Shown here: positions 4,047 to 24,353 of the stretch, piece after piece
How positions within the stretch are numbered: the first letter of the stretch is position 1
Layout: every line of letters starts with the position of its first letter
From: a virus
DNA: 64,000 nucleotides
IMG/VR virus record: IMGVR_UViG_3300010885_017808
Location: 1 to 64,000 of that record
Direction: 5' to 3' (one strand)
Notes under the pieces: generated by a model
What the model was told of the DNA's origin: nothing
Database searches by the model: none
What the model saw: only the letters and a program-made list of their open reading frames with translations
Program-made: the position numbers and the translations under genes

Positions 4047-6182
4047 ATGAAACGCATTGTACTAATCACAGGGGGTTTCGACCCCCTTCATTCTGGGCAT
4101 ATTGCCTACTTCAAAGCAGCAAAAGCCTTAGGCGATATGTTAATAGTAGGAATAAATTCCGACAATTGGCTACGTCGAAAAAAAGGTCGTGCATTTATGC
4201 CTCTTTTAGAACGACAAACAATCATAGAAAATATTGCCGGTGTTGACAAAGTCATTACATTTAATGATAGCAATAATAGTGCAATTGCGGCTATTATTAA
4301 AGTTCGAGATGAATTTCCAGAAGACAGAATAATTTTTGCTAATGGCGGTGATAGGACCAAAGATAATATTCCCGAAATGAGCGTCAATGATTTTAATTTA
4401 GAATTTGTATTCGGTGTAGGTGGTGAAGACAAAAAGAATTCCAGCAGCTGGATATTAGAAGATTGGAAATCACCAAAGACAATCAAACCTTGGGGCTATT
4501 ATCGTGTGTTACACGAAGTTCCGGGAATGAAAGTTAAAGAACTCACAGTGAATCCAGGCAAAAGTTTATCAATGCAACGTCATTCACAAAGATCAGAATA
4601 TTGGATTATTAGTGAAGGAAAAGCAGTAGTAAATCGTGCAATGGATAACGGCATCCCGATGCAGCAGATTACTATTAACAATCACGGCGAATATAAAGTT
4701 CCAGTCGGTGAATGGCATCAATTAACTAATCCGTTTGACGTTCCTGTTAAAGTCGTAGAAATACAATACGGTGATAAATGCGATGAACAAGATATTGTTA
4801 GAGAACAAGTACCTACAGTATATGTTGGATGGGATTCAAGAGAAGATATTGCCTACAAAGTGTGTGAATATAGTATTCACAATCATAATAAAGATGTAAA
4901 CGTCTTTCCTATTAAACAACACGAAGTTATTCAAAATAATTTATACTGGAGAGATCCGGATAAATTCTCCTCAACAGAATTTACCTTTACTCGATTCTTA
5001 GTTCCGTACCTATCAAACTATCAAGGTTGGGCAATTTTTACTGATTGTGATTTTTTATTTTTAGATGATGTAAAAAAAGTCTTTGATCAAGCAGACGAAC
5101 AATATGCTGTTATGGTAGTTAAGCATGATTATACTCCTGCAGAAATAGAAAAAATGGACGGAGCATTACAGAGAAACTATCCAAGAAAAAATTGGAGTTC
5201 TTTTATTCTATGGAACTGCGGTCATAGGCTAAATCGCGCATTAGATCTAAGAATGGTCAACGAAGAGCCAGGAAAATATCTGCACAGATTTGCCTGGTTA
5301 CCAGATGAAGCTATCGGAAGTTTGTCTCTAGAATGGAATTGGCTAACAGACTGGTATAAAGAACCAATAGATGGGTCTCCAAAAGCTCTACACTATACGT
5401 TAGGGGGTCCGTGGTTTAAAAATTATAAAACATGTGACTATTCAGAACATTGGATGAATGCGTACGATGCAGTAGTAGAGCGAGACGAAGGAAAAGAAAA
5501 AATGGATGCATTTATTATCCACTTGCCGTCTATACCAGCAAGTTTAAAAACAGCAGTAGATTTACAGAAATCTCTAAACGAATATGGTATCAATGCACAT
5601 TTAGCTGAAGGTGTGTTAGGCAATGAAGCTGTAGATGTTATGGAATTGGAAGGTAGAAAAGTACATCCATGGGGTATTAAAGGTCCAAATTCACCGCCTG
5701 CACCCGATGATACCTCTGTGCTTAAAGCAATGTCTCCGGGAGTACGAGGATGTTTCCTTGGACATTATAGACTATGGCAAAAATGCGTAGATTTGAATAA
5801 ACCCATTATGATTTTTGAAGACGATGTTGTATTAACCAGAGGATTTGAATCTGTTACTTGGGAAGATGTATTGATAGTAGCTATTGGACATCCTACTAAG
5901 AGTGCAGACTATTGGACCAATCTCAATAGTCCAAGTGGCCGCCCCTTTGCAGAACCGTGGACAAAGAGTTCTATGCCCGGAGCAATGGGATACGTAATCA
6001 AACCACATGCAGCAAAAAAACTTTTAGAAGTATATGAAAAAACATTCTTGCCTGCAGACAATGCTATAAATCAATACCATGTTAAAATTGAAATTTGTTC
6101 TCACCTAATGGGTCGTGCCTTAGTTGACGAAGACGGAAAGAAAAGTTTAACAAGAACAAAATTTTGGAATAATCCTAAATGA
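4047..6182 (+). CDS. Four-domain fusion: cytidylyltransferase, cupin, glycosyltransferase, GT25
   Basis: This 711-aa protein joins four recognisable parts. Residues 1-135 form a nucleotidyltransferase (GGFDPLHSGH), which activates sugar or polyol phosphates with CTP or ATP. Residues 140-250 are a cupin starting KPWGYY with PVGEWHQL, as in the mannose-6-phosphate isomerase type found with sugar nucleotide enzymes. Residues 257-480 look like a GT-A glycosyltransferase with a DCD metal motif (FTDCDFLFLDD). Residues 486-711 match family 25 LPS glycosyltransferases (IIHLPS at the start, FLGHYRLW, IFEDDVVL). No internal stop or frame change is present. One chain could make and transfer an activated sugar; the substrate and acceptor are unknown. 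Confidence 0.8.
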   Translation: MKRIVLITGGFDPLHSGHIAYFKAAKALGDMLIVGINSDNWLRRKKGRAFMPLLERQTIIENIAGVDKVITFNDSNNSAIAAIIKVRDEFPEDRIIFANGGDRTKDNIPEMSVNDFNLEFVFGVGGEDKKNSSSWILEDWKSPKTIKPWGYYRVLHEVPGMKVKELTVNPGKSLSMQRHSQRSEYWIISEGKAVVNRAMDNGIPMQQITINNHGEYKVPVGEWHQLTNPFDVPVKVVEIQYGDKCDEQDIVREQVPTVYVGWDSREDIAYKVCEYSIHNHNKDVNVFPIKQHEVIQNNLYWRDPDKFSSTEFTFTRFLVPYLSNYQGWAIFTDCDFLFLDDVKKVFDQADEQYAVMVVKHDYTPAEIEKMDGALQRNYPRKNWSSFILWNCGHRLNRALDLRMVNEEPGKYLHRFAWLPDEAIGSLSLEWNWLTDWYKEPIDGSPKALHYTLGGPWFKNYKTCDYSEHWMNAYDAVVERDEGKEKMDAFIIHLPSIPASLKTAVDLQKSLNEYGINAHLAEGVLGNEAVDVMELEGRKVHPWGIKGPNSPPAPDDTSVLKAMSPGVRGCFLGHYRLWQKCVDLNKPIMIFEDDVVLTRGFESVTWEDVLIVAIGHPTKSADYWTNLNSPSGRPFAEPWTKSSMPGAMGYVIKPHAAKKLLEVYEKTFLPADNAINQYHVKIEICSHLMGRALVDEDGKKSLTRTKFWNNPK

Positions 6183-11233: not shown

Positions 11234-12421
11234 ATGTCAACCTCTGTATATATTGAAGATACCTTCGTAGAATTTTTTGTATTATGTGGAACTCATACGA
11301 CAATTCTACAAAAATCAGATTCAAGTGCATGCGATAGTTTTTATAATCAGATAGCTGCCGGAAAGAAACTAACTGCTAATCAGGGTGCATATCTTTTAAA
11401 AATTTTAGAAAAGTATAAACACTTTGCTAAAAAGTGCGGATTAGATTTTACTGATATATTACCTAATCTTGTTTGGAAAAATCCATTTAGAACTTTAGAT
11501 TTAACAAAATCTATATTTGTTGAACAGACAGAAACTGATATTAATGTTTGTTTAAAGTTTCCCTATTCCTTAAAGAAAGAGTTTGAAACTGAGATTGAAA
11601 ATTCCAAAGGAGAACTTGTTAGCCAATGGGATCATAATAGGCAGTTACGAGTAATGAATTTGTATAATCAGAATATTATACATCTACATGAATTTTGTCA
11701 AAAATATAACTTTGAAATAGATAATTCTTTTCTTGATGCTGTAAGTCAAGTAGAAGAAATTTGGCAGCATCAACACGATGTAATTTGCTATAGCACTGTT
11801 GAAAATGATACAGTTGTACTACACAATGCCGTAGAATCTTCGCAGACATACTGGGAAGAACATAAAACTGATTCAGTTAATCACAACATGTTTTTAGCAA
11901 AAGTTATGGGATATCCTGTTAGCATTGAAGGAGCTCCAAAAACAATAATTGATAAAATTTCATCAACAGACGAGAAATCTTTTTGGATTAAGTCAATAGA
12001 TAGTTTTTTTGAACTGTACAATGATATAGGTGGAATTGCCTGTGTGTTGTTAGACAGAAATACTAAAAATGTTGTAGAATGGTTAGAACATTTTGTAAGA
12101 GCAGCTGAGTTACATAATGCACGGAATTTAATTAAGGTGTGTTTTAGAGACGAAGCTGACAAAAATTCCAATCTAAATACCTGGATCAAAGAACAAGGTC
12201 TAGGTGGAAAAGTTGATGAGGGTCGTATTTTAATATTCAATCATAAACCGCCCAAGTGGTTGTTTACTAAGAATATAGATGTTAAAATCGTAGTAACAAA
12301 TAGTTATACTCCTCATAATGAACCCGTTGCGGCTTCGTGGTTAGCAAGCCACTCCTGTATATGTTATGTGGGAGAAATTACACCTACTCCCCCGAGGAAT
12401 AAAAAAATTGTCAGTTTGTAA
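11234..12421 (+). CDS. Protein of unknown function upstream of UvsW
   Basis: A 395-aa protein that I do not recognise. The N-terminal half is helical and charged. The C-terminal half alternates strands and helices (GGIACVLLD, NLIKVCFRD, IDVKIVVTNSYTP), like an alpha/beta ATPase or toprim-type fold, but no Walker motif is visible. It ends 14 nt beyond the proposed uvsW start. Its place between a promoter and uvsW suggests a DNA-metabolism role, by context only. Confidence 0.7.
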   Translation: MSTSVYIEDTFVEFFVLCGTHTTILQKSDSSACDSFYNQIAAGKKLTANQGAYLLKILEKYKHFAKKCGLDFTDILPNLVWKNPFRTLDLTKSIFVEQTETDINVCLKFPYSLKKEFETEIENSKGELVSQWDHNRQLRVMNLYNQNIIHLHEFCQKYNFEIDNSFLDAVSQVEEIWQHQHDVICYSTVENDTVVLHNAVESSQTYWEEHKTDSVNHNMFLAKVMGYPVSIEGAPKTIIDKISSTDEKSFWIKSIDSFFELYNDIGGIACVLLDRNTKNVVEWLEHFVRAAELHNARNLIKVCFRDEADKNSNLNTWIKEQGLGGKVDEGRILIFNHKPPKWLFTKNIDVKIVVTNSYTPHNEPVAASWLASHSCICYVGEITPTPPRNKKIVSL

Positions 12422-13862
12422 ATTAATAATAAAAGACGAAGTAAACATTAAGTGTGAAGGCTTAAGTGTTGAAACTAGGCGTAAAATTGTCAACAAACTA
12501 AAATTTGATTTGCCTTACGCTCGTCACATGCCTGCTTACAAATTGGGTCGTTGGGATGGCACTAAAACATATTTTGGTATTGGCGGAAACGGTTATCTTG
12601 CACACCTAGATGTTATTCTACCTATCATCCAAGACTCTGGATATGAAATAGATATTGAAGATTTACGTCATCATAGCAAAATAGAATTTACACACGTTAC
12701 TGAAAATTATTGGGCAGACAAAGGCAAGACTTGGCCCAAAGGTCACCCTAATGCTGGAGATCCGATTGTACTTCGTGATTATCAATACGATGTAGTCAAT
12801 AAATTTTGCGATAATCCTCAAGCATTACAAGAAGTTGCTACCGGTGCTGGCAAGACAATTACCACAGCTACACTGAGTCACCTTAGTGAAAAATACGGAC
12901 GAACAATGGTTATTGTTCCTAATAAAAGTCTAGTAGTACAAACTGAAGAAGATTATAAGAACCTAGGACTTGATGTTGGTGTATACTTCGGTGATCGTAA
13001 AGAACTAGGAAAAACCCATACTATCTGTACTTGGCAAAGTCTTAATGTACTAGACAAAAATAGTTATGACGGCGATGCCTTATCTTTAGCAGAATTTATA
13101 GAAGGTGTAGCAGCTATTATTGTTGACGAAGTACATCAAGCTAAAGCAGAAGTACTTACTAAACTATTAACTCAAAACTTTAAAAACTGTGCCATACGAT
13201 GGGGATTGACTGGAACTATACCTAAAGAAGCTTGGGAGTTTCAAGGCATTTTAGCTAGTATTGGTCCAGTTATTAATCAAGTTTCTGCACACGACCTACA
13301 AGAAAAAGGTGTGTTGGCACAGTTACAGATTAATATTTTACAAACAAATGAAGTACAGGCGTTTAGAAGTTTTGCAGACGAATATGCGTTCTTAGTCACC
13401 GACGACTCACGTGTTACTTGGTTGGCAAATAAAATTAAAGAATTGGCATTAACGGGAAACACATTGGTGTTAATTAATAGAATTGACACCGGCAATAAAT
13501 TAATAGAACGTATTCCTGAAGCTGTCTTTGTTAGTGGTGGAATGAAACTTGACGACAGGAAAGATGAATATGATGAAATTAAAACAAGCAATGACAAGAT
13601 TATTGTGGCGACTTATGGTGTGGCCGCTGTGGGTATTAATATTCCAAGGATTTTTAATTTGGTTCTTGTGGAACCCGGAAAGAGCTTTGTCAGAGTTATA
13701 CAGAGTATTGGGCGAGGCATTAGAAAAGCGCAGGACAAAGACCACGTTGAGATCTGGGATATCACGTCCGCCTGCAAATATTCCAAGAGACATCTTACTG
13801 AAAGAAAGAAGTACTATAAAGAGGCGAAGTACCCCTTTACAATAACAAAAGTGAACATATGA
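12408..13862 (+). CDS. uvsW: UvsW, recombination/repair helicase
   Basis: UvsW is a superfamily 2 helicase that unwinds R-loops and branched DNA and regresses forks. The sequence shows an N-terminal domain ending PAYKLGRWDGTKTYF, then motif I TGAGKT near residue 144, the DEVH box (IIVDEVHQA), motif III (LTGTI) and motif VI QSIGRGIRK. The start is placed at TTG 12408, because GAGG lies 10 nt before it and the protein then begins SVCKLIIKD, as in the family. An in-frame ATG at 12366 has no ribosome site and adds 14 unlike residues. The product is 484 aa and overlaps the next gene by ATGA. Confidence 0.9.
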   Translation: MSVCKLIIKDEVNIKCEGLSVETRRKIVNKLKFDLPYARHMPAYKLGRWDGTKTYFGIGGNGYLAHLDVILPIIQDSGYEIDIEDLRHHSKIEFTHVTENYWADKGKTWPKGHPNAGDPIVLRDYQYDVVNKFCDNPQALQEVATGAGKTITTATLSHLSEKYGRTMVIVPNKSLVVQTEEDYKNLGLDVGVYFGDRKELGKTHTICTWQSLNVLDKNSYDGDALSLAEFIEGVAAIIVDEVHQAKAEVLTKLLTQNFKNCAIRWGLTGTIPKEAWEFQGILASIGPVINQVSAHDLQEKGVLAQLQINILQTNEVQAFRSFADEYAFLVTDDSRVTWLANKIKELALTGNTLVLINRIDTGNKLIERIPEAVFVSGGMKLDDRKDEYDEIKTSNDKIIVATYGVAAVGINIPRIFNLVLVEPGKSFVRVIQSIGRGIRKAQDKDHVEIWDITSACKYSKRHLTERKKYYKEAKYPFTITKVNI

Positions 13863-14984: not shown

Positions 14985-15450
14985 ACACGTAGATCTTTTT
15001 AGCGACATGATCCCGGCAGTGGACATGGGCATGAAAGAATTGTGGGATGCTGTAACTGAAGAAGGCCGAAAAGAAATTAAAGGCGATTTTTGGAATCTTA
15101 ATCGATATATCAGCAATGTTAAAAGTAATAATAGAGAATTACAAGAACATTTTTTATTAACTACAAACGAATTTTATAATAAAAACTGGTCGCTGATACA
15201 GAAACATCCTAAGCTGGTTTGGCAGACATTGTGTTTGTGTAGTCACGATTCAAAGAAAACTTATTTTCACGAATGGCTTCCTCTTAAAAAACAAAAAGAT
15301 AAAAAAGTAGAATTTTTAGCAAACTTATTTCCAGATATGAAAATATCTGATATAGAAACGTTGGCTGCTATTACAACTGATAAAGAGATTAAAGAATATG
15401 CTAAGGACCTTGGTTGGGACAAAAAGCAAATTAATGAAATTAAATTATAA
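14971..15450 (+). CDS. Probable gp62-like clamp-loader small subunit
   Basis: gp62 joins gp44 in loading the gp45 sliding clamp. The 159-aa protein has an FWNLNRYISN segment, a run of helices, a basic KKTYFHEWLPLKKQK stretch like the K-R-[FY]-x-K-W motif of gp62, and a C-terminal helical part (VEFLANLFP onward) like the region after it in T4. Overall similarity is low and no gp44 gene is in the window, so this is tentative. It lies between two replication-linked genes. Confidence 0.45.
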   Translation: MGKNKHVDLFSDMIPAVDMGMKELWDAVTEEGRKEIKGDFWNLNRYISNVKSNNRELQEHFLLTTNEFYNKNWSLIQKHPKLVWQTLCLCSHDSKKTYFHEWLPLKKQKDKKVEFLANLFPDMKISDIETLAAITTDKEIKEYAKDLGWDKKQINEIKL

Positions 15451-16117
15451 GTGTGAATTCTGTGAAAAACTATTTGCTAAAGAAAAAACTTTAGTAATAC
15501 ACATCTGTGAGCAAAAACGCAGATACTTAGGAAAATCTGAAAAACACGTACAACTAGGTTTGTTAACTTTTCAACGATTCTATGAATTAACACAAAAGGC
15601 AGCTAAACCTAAAACGTTTGATGAATTTGCTACAAGTAGTTTTTACACAGCATTTGTAAAATTTGGCAGTTTCCTATCTAACACAAATCCGATATATCCG
15701 GAAAGATTTATTGACTTTGTTGTTAAGAGTGGGATTAAACTTGACCATTGGTGTCGAGATGAACTGTATGACAAATATATTAGTGAGCTTATTAAAATTG
15801 AGCCTGCTGATGGAGCAATACAAAGAACTATCAAAACCATGATAGATTGGAGTGATGCAAATAAAGCACCCTGGGAGCATTATTTTGCATATGTAAATTT
15901 AAACAGAGCCACACACGATATTAAAGAAGGATTGATAAGTCCTTGGGTAGTGTTAAATAGCAAGTCAGGAAAAGACATGTTAAAAAGAATGAACGACGAG
16001 CAATTAGACATTATTGGTGCAGTAATTGACCCGCAACACTGGGCTCGTAAATTTAAAACTATGCCTGCCGATGTAGAATTAGTAAAAGCAGTACTTAAGG
16101 AGGCGAAGATATTGTAA
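15434..16117 (+). CDS. Zinc-finger protein of unknown function
   Basis: A 227-aa protein with an N-terminal C-x2-C...H-x-C zinc finger (YKCEFCEKLFAKEKTLVIHI; Cys7, Cys10, His23, Cys25). The rest is helical with DWSDANKAPWEHYF and ends in IDPQHWARKFK. The ATG at 15434 places the finger at the N-terminus; the overlap with the preceding gene is 17 nt. A similar protein appears to be conserved in cyanophage genomes. DNA or RNA binding is plausible from the finger, but its role is unknown. Confidence 0.7.
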   Translation: MKLNYKCEFCEKLFAKEKTLVIHICEQKRRYLGKSEKHVQLGLLTFQRFYELTQKAAKPKTFDEFATSSFYTAFVKFGSFLSNTNPIYPERFIDFVVKSGIKLDHWCRDELYDKYISELIKIEPADGAIQRTIKTMIDWSDANKAPWEHYFAYVNLNRATHDIKEGLISPWVVLNSKSGKDMLKRMNDEQLDIIGAVIDPQHWARKFKTMPADVELVKAVLKEAKIL

Positions 16118-16335
16118 TGCCAAAAAGACCAGAACCACCCGAAGAAGAATTAAAACATAACGAAGAATTTATTTCTCGTGATGATATAGACATTGAAGTT
16201 GTTATAGGCGAAGAATCTCCGGATGTGTATGTTAAATTTAGCGGATTTGATGATGCTGAAGATGCCGAAGAGTATGCGCAATTTTTAGCAGAAACGCTGC
16301 CACTCTTATTGTTTGAAAGTACAAGGTTACAATAA
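16117..16335 (+). CDS. Small acidic conserved protein
   Basis: A 72-aa protein with an acidic N-terminus (PEPPEEEL) and the segment DVYVKFSGFDDAEDAEEYAQ, ending LPLLLFEST. It is joined to both neighbours by TAATG overlaps, so it belongs to one translational unit with the zinc-finger and DnaE-like genes. It seems conserved in T4-like aquatic phages. No function is known. Confidence 0.7.
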   Translation: MPKRPEPPEEELKHNEEFISRDDIDIEVVIGEESPDVYVKFSGFDDAEDAEEYAQFLAETLPLLLFESTRLQ

Positions 16336-16913
16336 TGCCCGATATTGACATAGACTTTTTAGATAGAGAAAAAGCATTGACACTTTTTAAACATACTGTA
16401 GCAAGTAGAAAGGAAGATGCTAAGTTAGTTAAACATAACACAGGAGTTTATCTTCACGAAGTTCCTGTTGATCCAATAACTGGTCTATGTTCTGTTCCCT
16501 ATGACGAAGCAGACGATAGCGGATATTTTAAAATAGATTTTTTAAACGTTGGAATTTATAAAGGTGTTCGCGACGAAGAACACCTAGTTCAATTAATGAA
16601 TCAGGAGCCACTATGGGATCTATTACTTCAGGACGAATTTGTAAATCTGTTATTTCATTTGAACGGGCATGGGGATATAATCCGGAAGACCCTGCCGACT
16701 TCCGTGGAACAATTATCTGCCGTCCTAGCAATGATCCGCCCTGCCAAACGTTATCTGATTGGGAAGCCATGGACGACGATTATGACGGAAGTTTGGACCA
16801 AGCCCGAGACTGGTGAGTACTACTTTAAGAAGAGTCATGCTACAGCTTATGCTGTGGCCATTGTAGTGCAGATGAATTTAATCTGTGAACAAATCAGCTA
16901 CGGATATACCTAA
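16335..16913 (+). CDS. Miniature DnaE-like (family C polymerase) protein
   Basis: This 192-aa protein keeps, in order, the short conserved blocks of bacterial DNA polymerase III alpha while dropping what lies between. PDIDIDF (residues 2-8) matches the PDFDVDF strand with two catalytic aspartates (Asp5, Asp7). KHNTGVY (33-39) matches KHAGGVV. KIDFL (66-70) matches KFDFL with the third aspartate (Asp68). AMIRPA (132-137) matches ALFRPG. KKSHATAYA (165-173) matches NKSHSAAYA. DnaE has about 1,160 residues. It may be a reduced catalytic palm, a regulator or a decoy for the host polymerase; activity is unproven. The T4-type gp43 polymerase is not in this window. Confidence 0.65.
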   Translation: MPDIDIDFLDREKALTLFKHTVASRKEDAKLVKHNTGVYLHEVPVDPITGLCSVPYDEADDSGYFKIDFLNVGIYKGVRDEEHLVQLMNQEPLWDLLLQDEFVNLLFHLNGHGDIIRKTLPTSVEQLSAVLAMIRPAKRYLIGKPWTTIMTEVWTKPETGEYYFKKSHATAYAVAIVVQMNLICEQISYGYT

Positions 16914-17479
16914 TGAACTTTGACGCATTTAGTTCTGCACAACTGCAAAGTAAATTGTGGATGGTAGAGAAATTAGAATTTACACTAAACGAAAATATAC
17001 CAACTGATAGTAGTAATGGTTTTAGAATTTGGATTTTAGCAGGGTGGTATGGATTAGCTAATTTATTAATAAGAACAAGAAATATCCTTCCTGTTTTAGA
17101 AGTTCGTAGTTTTGATATCGATCCCGAATGTGAATCTATAGCCGATGCTATTAATAACTTATGGGTTTGGCAAGCATGGCAATTTAAAGCACACACTGGC
17201 GATATTAATCAACTGACATATGAGCCTAGACCAGACGTAGTAATTAATACTGCGGTAGAGCATATGACATCAAATGAGTGGTGGGAGAACATTCCAAAAG
17301 GTACTGTAGTTTGTTTACAATCTAGTGATATGGATCACTCTGATCATGTAAATACATTTTCTAACTATCGATCATTACAGGAAAAATATCCAATGGAAGA
17401 ATGGTATTATGAAGGAACCAAACGTTTCCAATACGACGATTTTGCATTTAATCGAAGTATGGTTATTGGAGTTAAGTAG
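16913..17479 (+). CDS. Probable SAM-dependent methyltransferase-like protein
   Basis: A 188-aa protein with a loop-like motif (WILAGWYGLANLL), an acidic second-strand end (VRSFDIDPEC) and PDVVINTAVEHM, together matching the order of class I methyltransferase motifs I to IV. It is coupled to the DnaE-like gene by TAATG and converges with the gene at 17472. The target is unknown. Confidence 0.6.
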   Translation: MNFDAFSSAQLQSKLWMVEKLEFTLNENIPTDSSNGFRIWILAGWYGLANLLIRTRNILPVLEVRSFDIDPECESIADAINNLWVWQAWQFKAHTGDINQLTYEPRPDVVINTAVEHMTSNEWWENIPKGTVVCLQSSDMDHSDHVNTFSNYRSLQEKYPMEEWYYEGTKRFQYDDFAFNRSMVIGVK

Positions 17480-17843
17480 GTTTTCTAACTAATGTAATAG
17501 ATTTTCTTTTAATACGTTTAACAATAATATCGTTTAAACTAGTGCATGGCCCAAACATTATCTTAACATCTTTTGTAGAGAAAGTTCTAATAGAATATCT
17601 AAAATTTGATATTTCTCTCAATAAGAAAATATTAATAGGAATTTGACGATTTGATTCCCACCACCAAGTCTCCCCTAACGCTATAAATTTAGCCTTATCT
17701 GGGTCTGACTTGATTAGGCTATAGTCGTACATACTTGTGACTTGTGCGTCTTGATTGATGATAATTCCCACGTATTCCTGATCTACATGATTTAACACGC
17801 TGATAAATGGAAAGTTTTGTTGTAAGTTTTCTGTTATTCTCAT
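17472..17843 (-). CDS. Conserved phage protein of unknown function
   Basis: A 123-aa protein containing GIIINQDAQVTSMYDYS, GETWWWESNRQIPINIFL and FGPCTSLNDII, and a very basic C-terminal stretch (VKRIKRKSITLVRKPT). I recognise it as a conserved protein of T4-like cyanophages without a known role. It is alone on the minus strand among plus-strand genes, its 3' end overlapping the preceding gene by 8 nt. No ribosome site is obvious. Confidence 0.7.
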   Translation of the reverse strand: MRITENLQQNFPFISVLNHVDQEYVGIIINQDAQVTSMYDYSLIKSDPDKAKFIALGETWWWESNRQIPINIFLLREISNFRYSIRTFSTKDVKIMFGPCTSLNDIIVKRIKRKSITLVRKPT

Positions 17844-18699: not shown

Positions 18700-19710
18700 A
18701 TGACTCTGGTTCTCGATAAGTTTCGCACACTATTACCTAAAACTAAAACTAGCCCAAGTGGCTGGACAAGTTTTAATGCTCCTTGCTGTCACAATCGAGG
18801 ACATGCTCGAGACACTAGAAAACGTGCTGGTGTGATGTTTAGTGACGGAGTTATCTACAACTGTTTTAATTGCAAATTTACAGCAAATTGGCAACCAGGC
18901 AGACAACTATCAGAAAAATTCAAGAGCCTATGTAAGTGGATGGGAGCAAGTGACGACGAAGTCAACACTATGATCTTTGAAGCTATGAAGACTGAGAGCC
19001 CAGAATACAAGCCCACTGAATACAAACCAAAAATAGAATTTCCTAATAGAGATCTACCCGACGGAGCATTGCCATTAGCCGAATGGATCGATGCTACTCT
19101 TACCTTTGATGAAGAACAACAGTTAATAAAAGTTGTAGAGTATGTTGTTAATCGAGGATTTGATCCTGTAAGTAAAGATTTTTATTGGACACCCGTACCT
19201 GGATTTATCGATAGGGTAATATTGCCATACTACTATGAAGGCAGAATTGTAGGGAATACCACACGTAAAATAACAGAAGGTAAACCTAAATATGTATCTG
19301 ATCAGCCGCCATTCTTTGTCTATAATAGTGACAATCAAGATGATGCTAACAAATATGTATTTGTTGTTGAGGGTCAGTTCGATGCTCTATCTGTAGGGGG
19401 TGTAGCGTTACTTACTAATGAAGTATCTGAGCAACAGGCTAGGATAATTAATAATATGGGTAAGACAGTTATTGTTATTCCGGATCAAGACAAAGCAGGT
19501 ACAATGTTAATGGAACAAGCAGTGGCATTAGATTGGCATGTGGCATTTCCTTCTTGGAGCAATGACATAAAAGATTGTGCAGATGCTGTGCAGAAGTACG
19601 GAAAATTATTTGTAGTAGTCGATGCCATAAAGACTGCAACTACAAACCCTGCTAAAATAGAAATTGAAAGATTAAAGTTATTAAAAAAATTGGAGTTGCG
19701 TAATGTTTAA
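18700..19710 (+). CDS. 61: DNA primase, gp61-like
   Basis: gp61 makes the RNA primers for lagging-strand synthesis and works with gp41. The 336-aa protein starts with a zinc ribbon: Cys28-Cys29-His30 and a later CFNC pair near residues 53-56. The TOPRIM domain has VVEGQFDALS near residue 222 (catalytic glutamate) and VIPDQDKAG near 258 (D-x-D). The length matches the T4 primase (342 aa). A perfect sigma-70 promoter ends 6 nt before the ATG and there is no ribosome site. The primase is followed by a tiny gene, the carbamoyltransferase-like gene and gp41. Confidence 0.9.
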   Translation: MTLVLDKFRTLLPKTKTSPSGWTSFNAPCCHNRGHARDTRKRAGVMFSDGVIYNCFNCKFTANWQPGRQLSEKFKSLCKWMGASDDEVNTMIFEAMKTESPEYKPTEYKPKIEFPNRDLPDGALPLAEWIDATLTFDEEQQLIKVVEYVVNRGFDPVSKDFYWTPVPGFIDRVILPYYYEGRIVGNTTRKITEGKPKYVSDQPPFFVYNSDNQDDANKYVFVVEGQFDALSVGGVALLTNEVSEQQARIINNMGKTVIVIPDQDKAGTMLMEQAVALDWHVAFPSWSNDIKDCADAVQKYGKLFVVVDAIKTATTNPAKIEIERLKLLKKLELRNV

Positions 19711-19819
19711 AAAAATATTATCTATCATCATATATCCTTATACAAAATATCAAGAACGTAAAGCATGGAAAAAACGTTTAGAAGAACTACGTAAACGTGA
19801 TCCCTTTATCTACAAATGA
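19703..19819 (+). CDS. Tiny conserved basic protein (38 aa)
   Basis: A 38-aa open frame, MFKKILSIII then PYTKYQERKAWKKRLEEL and ending KRDPFIYK. It overlaps the primase end and the next start (ATGA). The [RK]-x-x-E-[EK]-L-[RK]-K-R-D-P-F-I-Y-K ending is a pattern I recall from tiny genes of T4-like cyanophages beside the primase. A hydrophobic start and a charged helix suggest membrane attachment. No function is known. Confidence 0.6.
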   Translation: MFKKILSIIIYPYTKYQERKAWKKRLEELRKRDPFIYK

Positions 19820-20754
19820 TACACTGGGGAATCAATGCACTGAATCACGGCAGCAGTCTAGCGGTATTTAAGGACGGCTCGTTAGTTCAACAAACTTCAC
19901 ACAGTTCAGATCGTGTCAGCGATTTAGATACTGTAGGAGCATTACATTACGGTGCACCGGATCGTATCTTCTGGTATGAACGTCCGTGGATTAAAAAAGC
20001 CCGTCAGCTATATGCAGGACAATATTCTACAGCATTAGATATGTCAGTGTTGCCAAAAAAACATTTGAAACAATTTAAATATGCGCCAGTCACTTATACA
20101 CCGCATCATGCCAGCCATGCAGCCGCAGGCTACTATACCAGTCCTTTTAATCATTGCGCTGTTGTGGTACTCGACGCTATAGGCGAGTTTGAATGTGCAA
20201 CTATCTGGGAAGGTAAGCACGGAGAAATGCGTAAAGTGTGGAGCAGAAGTTATCCGCACAGTCTAGGATTGTTCTATAGTGCGTTTACTAAGTTAGTTGG
20301 CTTGACTCCTATTAAAGACGAATACCTGTTACAAAAAATGGCAGAGCAAGGTGATCCAGATCGTTACTATAGGACAATGTTGGATTATATGACAGGCTTA
20401 ATTGAATCAGGTTATAATATGCATCGTGGCATATTAAATTGGCCGCACGACATTGTCAATTTACAAGACCAATGCGACATTGCAGCCGCAGTACAAACTG
20501 TATTTGAAACTCAAATACAACGTGTTATGAGCAAGGCCAAAGAATTAACCAACGCAGATTCTCTAGTATACATGGGCGGCTGTGCTATGAATAGTAAGAC
20601 AAACCAAACAATAGTTGAACCTATGTGGAAGTATCGATGGAGTTTACCGCAACCTGGGGATCCTAGTAGTAGCATTGGCGCAGTATTGTATCACACCAAG
20701 AACCGAGTTCGTTGGGACGGATCTCTTGCAAAGCACCTAACAATTAATGTATAA
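19816..20754 (+). CDS. Carbamoyltransferase-like protein (NodU/TobZ family)
   Basis: NodU/TobZ enzymes use ATP and carbamoyl phosphate to carbamoylate sugars or other hydroxyls. The 312-aa protein keeps the Kae1-like domain: INALNHGSSLAVF at the N-terminus, the metal-binding HHASHAAAGYY near residue 96, VVVLDAIGEFE and the YMGGCAMNSK motif near the end. Full NodU proteins have about 550-600 residues; the C-terminal domain is absent, as in many T4-like phage homologues. It sits between primase and helicase, so the acceptor may be a nucleotide, but that is inference. Confidence 0.8.
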   Translation: MIHWGINALNHGSSLAVFKDGSLVQQTSHSSDRVSDLDTVGALHYGAPDRIFWYERPWIKKARQLYAGQYSTALDMSVLPKKHLKQFKYAPVTYTPHHASHAAAGYYTSPFNHCAVVVLDAIGEFECATIWEGKHGEMRKVWSRSYPHSLGLFYSAFTKLVGLTPIKDEYLLQKMAEQGDPDRYYRTMLDYMTGLIESGYNMHRGILNWPHDIVNLQDQCDIAAAVQTVFETQIQRVMSKAKELTNADSLVYMGGCAMNSKTNQTIVEPMWKYRWSLPQPGDPSSSIGAVLYHTKNRVRWDGSLAKHLTINV

Positions 20755-20762
20755 TAACTAAT

Positions 20763-22196
20763 ATGATTAAAGACTACGGAATAGAAGTACAGAAATTATA
20801 CCTTGAAATGATGTTGGCAGATGCAGAAGTATTTGTTCGTTGTCAAGGTATCTTTGATCACACGTTGTTTGATCGAAAACTGCAGGACGCTGCTGAGTTT
20901 ATCAACGAGTATGCCAAGGGCTATAATGTATTACCAGACTTTGAAATGGTCAATGCAAGTTGTCGAACGGATCTTAAACGACCAGACGATCTCAAAGACG
21001 GGCACATGGATTGGCTCATGGATGAGTTTGAAAGTTTTACTAGACACAAAGCTATTGAACGTGCAATTATTGCCAGTGCTGATTTATTGGAAAAACATAA
21101 TTATGGTGAAGTCGAAGCACTAATTAAAGAAGCTGTGCAAATTGGACTTGCTCGAGACATGGGCACAGATTACTTTTTAGATCCACGTGGACGCCTATTA
21201 GGCCTTAAAGATAAAAACGGTCAAGTATCTACTGGCTGGGCTACCATGGACAAGCGATTGTTCGGCGGATTCAATCGTGGTGAACTAAACATCTTTGCTG
21301 GCGGATCGGGTGCAGGTAAGAGTCTATTCCTGGCAAACTTAGGCGTTAACTTTGCACTCTCCGGTCTTAATGTAGTTTATCTAACACTAGAACTTAGTGA
21401 AGCACTAGTAGGTATGCGTATTGACAGTATGGTAACTGGAGTATCAACTAGAGAGATTTTTAAAGATCTTGACGCTGTTGAAATGAAAGTTAAGATGATT
21501 GGCAAGAAGTCTGGTATGTTACAGATCAAATACATGCCGTCGGGTAAGACAACTAATGATATTAGAGCCTATCTAAAAGAATACGAAATCAAATGTGGTA
21601 AGAAAGTAGACGTACTATTGGTAGACTACTTGGACTTGTTAATGCCTATTGGTAAGAAGATTTCAGCAGAAAACTTGTTTATCAAAGACAAATATGTATC
21701 AGAAGAACTTAGAAATCTAGCCATGGAAAAGAAATGTGTGTTCGTTACTGCGGCACAGTTGAATCGTGGTGCTGTTGAAGAAGTTGAGTTTGATCACAGT
21801 CACATTTCAGGCGGGCTTAGTAAGATTCAAACAGCGGATAATGTCTTTGGTATCTTTACCAGTCGTGCTATGCGTGAACGTGGCAAGTATCAACTTCAGC
21901 TGATGAAAACTCGTAGTTCGAGCGGAGTAGGTATGAAGATTGACCTAAACTTCGATATTGAAACTTTAAAAATTACAGACTGTCCTGAAGATGAGCAAGA
22001 CAGCAACGGAGCCACTAATAGAGGTAGTAGCAGTATCATTGAAAGTATCAAAGCACGTAGTACTATTAAAGCAGATGCAGACGGTGTTATACATGACGAT
22101 CCTACAAAAGGCATGCCCGTGGGAAAGATAAGAGCCACTGTAGAAAGCAGCAAGCTCAGAGAAATTTTAAATAATCAGTTTGGCGATGAAGACTAA
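20763..22196 (+). CDS. 41: Replicative DNA helicase, gp41-like (DnaB family)
   Basis: gp41 is the hexameric helicase that unwinds the fork and activates the primase. The 477-aa protein has the N-terminal helical domain, then GGFNRGELNIFAGGSGAGKS (Walker A at about residues 180-187), VLLVDYLDLL (Walker B), TAAQLNRG, and the L-[MK]-K-T-R-S-S arginine-finger area (LQLMKTRSSSG). The length matches T4 gp41 (475 aa). It forms one transcription unit with the primase. Confidence 0.95.
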   Translation: MIKDYGIEVQKLYLEMMLADAEVFVRCQGIFDHTLFDRKLQDAAEFINEYAKGYNVLPDFEMVNASCRTDLKRPDDLKDGHMDWLMDEFESFTRHKAIERAIIASADLLEKHNYGEVEALIKEAVQIGLARDMGTDYFLDPRGRLLGLKDKNGQVSTGWATMDKRLFGGFNRGELNIFAGGSGAGKSLFLANLGVNFALSGLNVVYLTLELSEALVGMRIDSMVTGVSTREIFKDLDAVEMKVKMIGKKSGMLQIKYMPSGKTTNDIRAYLKEYEIKCGKKVDVLLVDYLDLLMPIGKKISAENLFIKDKYVSEELRNLAMEKKCVFVTAAQLNRGAVEEVEFDHSHISGGLSKIQTADNVFGIFTSRAMRERGKYQLQLMKTRSSSGVGMKIDLNFDIETLKITDCPEDEQDSNGATNRGSSSIIESIKARSTIKADADGVIHDDPTKGMPVGKIRATVESSKLREILNNQFGDED

Positions 22197-22819: not shown

Positions 22820-23530
22820 GTGCGTCTTAGAGAACTACGAGAACAGTCAGACGCCATTACAATTAACCGGCGCCTTAACCCTAAAATATGGCAGGACGGC
22901 AATCTTGACCCACAGGTTGCAGATAAGTTAAAAGAAATTGCCGAGGCCTTTGTAGACTTTATAGCTATTGAGTTAGACATTGTAGATCTTACCATAACAG
23001 GAAGTAATGCCAACTACACCTGGACAGAATACAGCGATTTGGATCTACACGTTATTGTCTCAGGCATGCCCGATGAACGCAGTCGCGAACTATTCAATGC
23101 AAAAAAGACTCTATGGGCCGATCAACACGATATCACAGTCAAAGGCTTGCCTGTTGAGTGTTACGTACAGGGCGAGGAAGAAAAACATCACAGCACGGGT
23201 GTTTATAGCCTGTTAGACGCTGCGTGGGTAGTGGAACCTAAAAAGACCAAGCCCCAGGTAGATGATAGTGCTGTAGACGCTAAAAAAGACGCAGTATTGC
23301 ATGATATAGAAGTAGCCCTACTCAGCAAGGATCTAGATAAGATTCGCACAGTCAAGGACAAGATCACACAGATGCGCAAAGCGGGCCTGGCCCGTGCCGG
23401 AGAGTGGTCAACAGAAAACCTAGTTTTCAAAATAATTCGAAACCTAGGTTTGATTGATCAAATTGCGGAAAAGATTCGTGAACTAGAAGATCAAGAACTC
23501 AGCCTAGAACAGGCCCAGCAGTTGGTCTAA
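22820..23530 (+). CDS. Nucleotidyltransferase-fold protein, candidate internal protein
   Basis: A 236-aa protein. Residues 61-77 (GSNANYTWTEYSDLDLHV) match the G-S...D-x-D-x-H metal-binding signature of the polymerase-beta nucleotidyltransferase superfamily. The N-terminus MRLRELREQ fits a T4-like capsid-targeting peptide with an L-R-E cleavage site. The C-terminal third is helical and ends QELSLEQAQQLV. It starts at GTG 22820, with GGAG 6 nt before. It could modify RNA, protein or metabolites; that it enters the cell with the DNA is inference. Confidence 0.7.
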   Translation: MRLRELREQSDAITINRRLNPKIWQDGNLDPQVADKLKEIAEAFVDFIAIELDIVDLTITGSNANYTWTEYSDLDLHVIVSGMPDERSRELFNAKKTLWADQHDITVKGLPVECYVQGEEEKHHSTGVYSLLDAAWVVEPKKTKPQVDDSAVDAKKDAVLHDIEVALLSKDLDKIRTVKDKITQMRKAGLARAGEWSTENLVFKIIRNLGLIDQIAEKIRELEDQELSLEQAQQLV

Positions 23531-23660: not shown

Positions 23661-24353
23661 TTAATCTTTCTTGCCGCCAAACAACTGTAGAAGATTCAGG
23701 AACAGGTTGATAAAGTCCATGTATAGAGTTAGAGCACCCATGACTTCCAATCTGCCATCATTCTCCATGCTGATCATTTCACGAATCTGCTGTGTGTCAT
23801 AGGCAGTTAGTCCCAGGAAGATAATGATAGCAATGGCTGAAATAACCATCTGCATGACTGTGCTGCCAATAAAGATATTTACAATGCTGGCAATCACAAT
23901 GGCAATAAGTCCCACTATCATCAATTGCCCCATTGAGCTTAGATCCTTCTTGGTAAAGTAGCCATAGCCGCTCATGACCGCAAACAAAATAGCGGCACCC
24001 ATGAAAGCATTAATAATACTGCCCATTTGGTAAACAGCAAAGATTGTGGCAAAACTCAAGCCCATTAGAGCAGCAAATGCATGTAGCAGCAGTTGAGCAC
24101 CCTGCTTGCTGACCTTGTCCATGAAATAGCCCACGGCAAAAATAGCTGCCAAGGGAGCAAATATCACAATCCATTTCATAATGCCGGTAAAGAAAAATGC
24201 CAGCAATTCTGGTGTAGTGCCCACAAAGTAGCTGACCAGCATACTGGTGGTGACTGCCAGGCTCATCTGTGCATAGACACGCCCCATGGCTGAGTTTACA
24301 GCATCAGCGGAACGATAGGTGTCCGACGACATAAAATTATCAAGTGTATTCAT
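23661..24353 (-). CDS. Bax inhibitor-1/YccA-like membrane protein
   Basis: Members of this family (UPF0005, YccA, YbhL) are seven-helix inner-membrane proteins; YccA inhibits the FtsH protease. The 230-aa length matches bacterial members. After a soluble N-terminus (about 25 aa) come seven hydrophobic segments, with FLGLTAYDTQQIREM near residue 178 and ALTLYMDFINLFLNLLQL at the end, the family's signature region with conserved aspartates. SD AAGGAG precedes the start. It lies downstream of a small gene with its own early promoter. Protection of phage membrane proteins or delay of cell death would fit but is unproven. Confidence 0.9.
   Translation of the reverse strand: MNTLDNFMSSDTYRSADAVNSAMGRVYAQMSLAVTTSMLVSYFVGTTPELLAFFFTGIMKWIVIFAPLAAIFAVGYFMDKVSKQGAQLLLHAFAALMGLSFATIFAVYQMGSIINAFMGAAILFAVMSGYGYFTKKDLSSMGQLMIVGLIAIVIASIVNIFIGSTVMQMVISAIAIIIFLGLTAYDTQQIREMISMENDGRLEVMGALTLYMDFINLFLNLLQLFGGKKD

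What the first reader, a model, noticed from the sequence alone, without database searches (positions are those of the whole stretch)
16335..16913. A 192-residue miniature of bacterial DNA polymerase III alpha
The protein keeps the short conserved blocks of DnaE in the right order: PDIDIDF, KHNTGV, KIDFL, AMIRPA and KKSHATAYA, including all three catalytic aspartates. The roughly 1,000 residues around and between them are lost, including the PHP, fingers and beta-binding parts. It sits in a translationally coupled T4-like replication cluster. It might be a minimal polymerase or nucleotidyltransferase, a structural remnant, or a decoy for the host replisome. I am not aware of a described function for it.
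Basis: partly seen in the sequence, partly recalled or inferred. Interest (0 to 1): 0.85.

Follow-up and report, generated by a model that had tools for sequence, protein, structure and literature searches.

The report
Half of a split phage polymerase
This small phage protein is one half of the catalytic core of a bacterial-type replicative DNA polymerase; in related phages a separate, distant gene encodes the other half, so the two probably join into a tiny two-part enzyme, an arrangement predicted in 2021 for which I found no experimental test.

Summary
The ORF is real (192 aa). It matches the known phage family PHROG 11778 at 2.8e-67, with at least 556 loci in IMG/VR and 63 phage genomes. 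The AlphaFold model (pLDDT 92) aligns over its whole length to E. coli Pol III alpha 401-784, and all three catalytic aspartates plus K553 are invariant in relatives down to about 37% identity.

Two points change the story. First, the other half of the palm is not lost. Related phages carry it as a separate ~155-175 aa gene (PHROG 11127), whose model aligns to E. coli alpha 272-395, ending where ours begins. Both halves and a family B polymerase occur in 13 of 13 complete phage genomes tested. Second, Iyer et al. 2021 already described this split "minimal Pol III alpha" in silico.

Most likely the two halves pair without a covalent link and rebuild a two-metal nucleotidyltransferase site serving the T4-like replisome. 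This is inferred and untested. Thumb and inner fingers are missing, so ordinary processive polymerisation is doubtful. A decoy is unlikely, because the PHP, clamp-binding and tau-binding regions are absent. The partner gene is not on this 64.5-kb fragment. A new member of a known but uncharacterised kind.

The parts
16335..16913 (+). C-unit: Mg2+-binding C-terminal half of a split Pol III alpha palm plus two fingers pieces (192 aa)
   Evidence: phrog_11778 2.8e-67; AF2 pLDDT 92, pTM 0.84; structure aligns to E. coli alpha 401-784, Z 8.8
16341..16355 (+). D3-I-D5-I-D7 = E. coli D401/D403/D405, first catalytic block; each Asp present in all 120 unique homologues that reach it
16434..16445 (+). 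H34-N-T-G37 = E. coli KHAGG block (H511); H and G invariant
16530..16538 (+). K66-I-D68 = E. coli K553/D555, third catalytic Asp; invariant in 122/122
16734..16748 (+). I134-R135-P136-A-K138 = E. coli FRPGP (638-642) block at the palm/fingers border
16830..16850 (+). K166-S-H168-A-T-A-Y172 = E. coli NKSH (757-760) block; H168 invariant
15398..16117 (+). conserved upstream neighbour (phrog_11058, weak C2H2-finger-like), in 152/156 loci
16117..16335 (+). 72-aa acidic ORF, stop overlaps the C-unit start (TAATG); in 59/147 loci only
16913..17479 (+). 188-aa ORF coupled downstream; found in only 9/144 loci, a local insertion
17472..17843 (-). conserved opposite-strand gene just downstream (phrog_11637), in 136/140 loci
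18700..19710 (+). T4 gp61-like primase (phrog_47), conserved in the cassette
20763..22196 (+). T4 gp41-like DnaB helicase (phrog_19), conserved in the cassette
12366..13862 (+). UvsW-like helicase, conserved upstream

Best explanation
The protein is the C-terminal, metal-binding half of a split and pared-down family C (Pol III alpha/DnaE) catalytic core. It pairs without a covalent link with a separately encoded N-terminal half that carries the GRGS triphosphate-binding motif. Together (about 155-175 plus 192 aa) they rebuild a Pol-beta-like palm with D401/D403/D555-equivalent aspartates that catalyses two-metal nucleotidyl transfer on DNA. The pair works inside a T4-like replisome (gp61 primase, gp41 helicase, gp44 clamp loader) next to the phage's own family B polymerase, most likely as a short-range accessory synthesis or end-processing enzyme rather than the main replicase. 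Shown here: homology, fold, conservation, the breakpoint, co-occurrence and gene context. Inferred: pairing, catalysis and role.
For: Fold and collinearity: the C-unit model 1-190 aligns to E. coli alpha 401-784 (Z 8.8, 183 aligned, rmsd 4.7; next unrelated chain Z 3.5). The N-unit model 52-155 aligns to 272-395 (Z 10.4, 101 aligned, rmsd 3.1), and its profile matches 317-393 (E 2.5e-5). The two ranges abut. Active site: D3, D5, D7, K66 and D68 are invariant, and GRGS is invariant in 95/95 N-units. Selection: median dN/dS 0.11. Co-occurrence of N-unit, C-unit and family B polymerase in 13/13 complete phages, the halves 11-224 kb apart. N-unit also on contigs of close relatives, near gp44. Conserved replisome cassette. 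The same reading was published on independent grounds (PMC7824862).
Against: The thumb (about E. coli 433-510) and the inner fingers with YQEQVM (686) and LRRAMGKK (708) are absent, and the fingers normally help bind the incoming dNTP (own knowledge). No activity or N-C contact has been measured, and no complex could be predicted here. The partner is not on the window's 64.5-kb contig. One 280-kb contig shows a C-unit and a family B polymerase but no N-unit, though it may be incomplete.
Confidence: 0.68

Rival explanations
1. A catalytically dead palm used as a scaffold: the split palm halves form a non-catalytic replisome subunit that bridges primase-helicase, clamp loader and the family B polymerase.
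For: Thumb and dNTP-contacting fingers are missing; a family B polymerase was present in every complete genome tested; the gene sits in a helicase-primase cassette.
Against: All three catalytic Asp, the third DxDxD Asp and Lys553 are invariant in about 120 unique sequences and GRGS in 95/95 partners; scaffolds usually lose such residues.
Confidence: 0.17
2. The C-unit works alone as a minimal nucleotidyltransferase; the N-unit is an independent relic with a separate role.
For: The two genes are usually unlinked, 11-224 kb apart; some contigs show only one of them.
Against: N-unit and C-unit co-occur in every complete genome tested; each half is an incomplete palm, and their structural ranges abut at E. 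coli 395/401.
Confidence: 0.1
3. A decoy or inhibitor that mimics DnaE to poison the host replisome.
For: It resembles DnaE in sequence and fold.
Against: It lacks the PHP (epsilon-binding), clamp-binding, OB and tau-binding regions by which alpha joins the replisome (matches stop at E. coli 784); active-site conservation is unnecessary for a decoy; it sits among phage replication genes rather than early host-takeover genes.
Confidence: 0.04

Closest known systems
Split minimal DNA polymerase III alpha of group 2.2 jumbo phages (Iyer et al. 2021, PMC7824862); PHROG 11778 (C-unit) and 11127 (N-unit)
   Same: Same phage group (RaK2, GAP32, CBB, Atu_ph07, XacN1), same two-protein split into an NTP-binding N part and a Mg2+/template-binding C part, same coexistence with a family B polymerase, distant genes.
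   Different: No difference in kind. The window protein is a further member (39-55% identical to the named phages, up to 87% to IMG/VR relatives). This report adds the exact breakpoint, structural ranges and occurrence in a 141-kb, non-jumbo phage.
Bacterial DnaE / PolC (family C polymerases)
   Same: Palm fold, DxDxD and KxD catalytic blocks, RP and KSHA blocks in order.
   Different: No PHP, no GRGS in this polypeptide, no thumb, shortened fingers, no clamp-, OB- or tau-binding parts.
Split-intein DnaE (cyanobacteria, own knowledge; apparently Bacteroides phage BS-TP1)
   Same: Alpha subunit in two genes; in BS-TP1 the break lies at the same place, between FLLPER and PDxDxD.
   Different: BS-TP1 carries intein-like ends and full PHP and fingers; the units here carry no intein, so no covalent rejoining is expected.

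Membership tests
Split minimal Pol III alpha, C-unit (PHROG 11778) | Full-length profile match | tested here: met
   2.8e-67 over 3-186 of 197 positions
Split minimal Pol III alpha, C-unit (PHROG 11778) | Protein begins within a few residues of DxDxD, no N-terminal palm half | tested here: met
   Starts MPDIDIDF; in nearly all of 168 relatives the first in-frame start lies 0-7 codons before the motif
Split minimal Pol III alpha, C-unit (PHROG 11778) | Catalytic Asp/Lys kept | tested here: met
Split minimal Pol III alpha, C-unit (PHROG 11778) | N-unit (PHROG 11127) elsewhere in the same genome | tested here: inconclusive
   Absent from the 64.5-kb fragment; present in 13/13 complete relatives and on contigs of relatives with 67-73% identical C-units (G003, G004, G007)
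Split minimal Pol III alpha, C-unit (PHROG 11778) | Coexisting family B polymerase | not tested
   Not searched in the window fragment itself; present in 13/13 complete relatives
DnaE / Pol III alpha proper | PHP domain, clamp-, OB- and tau-binding regions | tested here: not met
   Model and profile cover only E. coli 399-784; protein is 192 aa
DnaE / Pol III alpha proper | GRGS triphosphate-binding motif in the same chain | tested here: not met
   Motif lies before the start of this protein; found in the N-unit
DnaE / Pol III alpha proper | Catalytic DxDxD and KxD | tested here: met
DnaE / Pol III alpha proper | Nucleotide polymerisation | not testable with these tools
   needs purified protein
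Split-intein DnaE | Intein halves at the break | tested here: not met
   No intein domain in either unit; N-units end right after the E. coli FLN393 equivalent

The most novel reading that the evidence does not exclude
The N-unit and C-unit form an active heterodimer of about 350 residues: the smallest known family C polymerase core, working without PHP, thumb or full fingers beside a family B replicase, with the halves supplied by unlinked genes.
Probability: 0.42. Interest if true: 0.75.

Novelty: new member of a known kind. Interest (0 to 1): 0.45.

Why it matters
Family C polymerases are known as large proteins of about 1,000 residues or more. A conserved two-piece core near 350 residues would show what is minimally needed for that chemistry and would explain why phages with a family B replicase keep a second polymerase type. 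The pair is present in cultured phages that grow on laboratory hosts, so the question can be tested directly. I found no experiment on it in the open-access papers searched.

Tried and rejected
Single-sequence Pfam gave only a meaningless HEAT hit; the DnaE link appears clearly only with the family. A scan of 84,980 prokaryote species genomes with the C-unit alignment found no cellular relative, but that scan relies on two short peptide patterns. The N-unit was sought on the window contig and not found, and not found on eight further fragments with a 15-row profile. I looked for fused N+C ORFs; none had more than 55 residues upstream of the motif. QMNLI near the C-terminus resembles a clamp-binding peptide, but it lies in a predicted helix and corresponds to DnaE YQTLW, so I rejected it as a clamp motif. 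Trans-splicing was rejected because there are no intein parts. A tRNA hydroxylase hit in the PDB sequence search is not supported by structure.

Full report
**What is there.** The ORF at 16335-16913 (+) encodes 192 residues. It is joined to its neighbours by TAATG overlaps at both ends. The window is part of a 64,523-base virus record with a T4-like replication region: UvsX, UvsW, gp61-like primase and gp41-like helicase.

**It belongs to a known family.** PHROG 11778, labelled 'DNA polymerase', matches at 2.8e-67 over almost the whole length. A protein search of 50,697 phage records found full-length relatives in 63. They include RaK2, GAP32, CBB, 121Q, PBECO4, BF, PA5oct-like phages, XacN1, SCTP-2, Atu_ph07 and Phosso, plus two 141-kb Alishewanella phages. 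IMG/VR holds at least 556; further scans with distant members brought the loci examined to 170. Some records already call it 'DnaE-like DNA polymerase III alpha'.

**The DnaE reading holds.** One sequence alone gives little, but the family does. Eighteen of 27 members match Pfam DNA_pol3_finger, and 25 match the full-length phage DnaE family phrog_405. The family profile's best PDB chain is a Pol III alpha, although at weak E-values (0.011-0.016). hhalign against a small DnaE alignment (E. coli and three phage DnaE, two of them joined from two ORFs) gives collinear matches from E. coli 399 to 774, the first block only weakly. The AlphaFold model is confident (pLDDT 92.1, pTM 0.84). Foldseek ranks 1-14 are DnaE/PolC-type or unnamed DNA polymerase entries (best E 2.6e-3, probability 1.0). 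VIA-align places model residues 1-190 on E. coli alpha 401-784 (Z 8.8, 183 aligned, rmsd 4.7), with unrelated chains at Z 3.5 or less. The middling Z and rmsd fit a conserved core with large deletions.

**What is kept and what is missing.** Numbering from E. coli dnaE: D3/D5/D7 = D401/D403/D405, H34 = H511, K66 = K553, D68 = D555, R135-P136 = R639-P640, H168 = H760. All of these are invariant in 67 diverse members. In 122 unique sequences, those that reach the DxDxD block all keep its three Asp. That all five active-site residues named in advance fall among 12 invariant columns of 192 has a chance probability of 4e-7. Pairwise dN/dS is about 0.1. Missing relative to E. coli: the PHP domain; the stretch from about 415 to 493, which holds most of the thumb; about 643-735, the inner fingers with YQEQVM (686) and LRRAMGKK (708); and everything after about 784.

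**The missing N-terminal half exists as another gene.** Iyer et al. 2021 (PMC7824862) state that group 2.2 jumbo phages carry, beside a family B polymerase, a minimal Pol III alpha split into two distant genes: an N-terminal NTP-binding unit and a C-terminal Mg2+- and template-binding unit. The figure accessions are not held, so matching the window protein to their C unit rests on their description and phage group. The CBB paper had noted a truncated 172-aa alpha, CBB_328 (PMC5259590). I found that gene: PHROG 11127, Pfam DNA_pol3_alpha at 2e-8. IMG/VR holds at least 594 N-units. GRGS is invariant in 95 of 95 examined, and the protein always stops 29-37 residues after it. Its profile matches E. 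coli alpha 317-393 (E 2.5e-5), and its model (pLDDT 91) aligns to 272-395 (Z 10.4, rmsd 3.1). So the N-unit ends at 393-395 and the C-unit begins at 400-401: two abutting halves of one palm.

**Co-occurrence and context.** In 13 of 13 complete phage genomes tested, the C-unit, the N-unit and a family B polymerase occur together, with the two halves 11-224 kb apart. The 13 include the 141-kb Slicko01, so the pair is not confined to jumbo phages. A 109-kb unverified record lacks the N-unit. Among contigs that carry a C-unit, the N-unit was found on some, including relatives of the window with 67-73% identical C-units, and not on others, including one of 280 kb; contigs may be incomplete. The window's own fragment has none. 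The C-unit lies in a conserved cassette: UvsW, phrog_11279, phrog_11058, C-unit, opposite-strand phrog_11637, primase, helicase, each found in most loci that span the place. The N-unit lies near the gp44 clamp loader both in CBB and in an IMG/VR contig whose N-unit is like those of the window's nearest relatives.

**Mechanism.** Shown: a split palm, complementary halves, invariant active site, purifying selection, replisome context. Inferred: non-covalent pairing, two-metal nucleotidyl transfer, and a role as an accessory synthesis or repair enzyme beside the family B replicase. Neither half carries an intein, so no trans-splicing is expected. Without thumb and inner fingers, processive replication is unlikely. 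A dead scaffold remains the main rival. A decoy is disfavoured because the known host-contact regions are absent and the catalytic residues are kept.

**A hint about origin.** In Bacteroides phage BS-TP1 the alpha subunit is broken at the same place, between FLLPER and PDVDND. The N-part ends in, and the C-part begins with, sequence that looks like split-intein halves. No intein model matched the N-part, so this is a reading by eye. It suggests that this junction tolerates splitting and that intein loss is one possible route to the RaK2-type pair. This is conjecture.

**Novelty.** The kind was described in silico in 2021, and I found no experimental study in the papers searched. This protein is a new member of it. 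Added here: the exact breakpoint and structural ranges of both halves, the invariant residues of each, the missing fingers blocks, co-occurrence in 13 of 13 genomes, and occurrence outside jumbo phages.

Noticed in passing
L294:2825-4555 and the ORF from L294:5795 (Bacteroides phage BS-TP1, PQ571274.1): DnaE split at the same palm junction (FLLPERAGL / PDVDNDF) with intein-like sequence on both halves and a Dda-like helicase gene between; looks like a split-intein DnaE. Judged by eye; no intein profile matched the N-part.
   Followed up: partly
L293:2798-7168 (Bacillus phage KLEB27-3); L295:3047-7672 (Thomasclavelia phage TR-TP2): Phage DnaE genes interrupted by an HNH endonuclease gene, leaving two separate ORFs, at sites other than the RaK2-type break.
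   Followed up: partly
window 4047-6182: 711-aa protein joining a cytidylyltransferase-like domain, a mannose-6-phosphate isomerase C-terminal cupin and family 25 glycosyltransferase parts.
   Followed up: no
window 19816-20754: Carbamoyltransferase (NodU/Nol-like) gene inserted between the primase and helicase genes; a homologue lies in 51 of 119 related loci.
   Followed up: no
window 22820-23530: Protein with an NTP_transf_2 nucleotidyltransferase domain (phrog_36119, unknown function) just downstream of the helicase gene.
   Followed up: no
window 23661-24353 (minus strand): Bax1-I (BI-1-like) membrane protein family match at 2e-53 in a phage genome.
   Followed up: no
window 17472-17843 (minus strand): Small opposite-strand gene (phrog_11637, unknown) beside the C-unit in 136 of 140 loci; a candidate functional partner.
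   Followed up: partly
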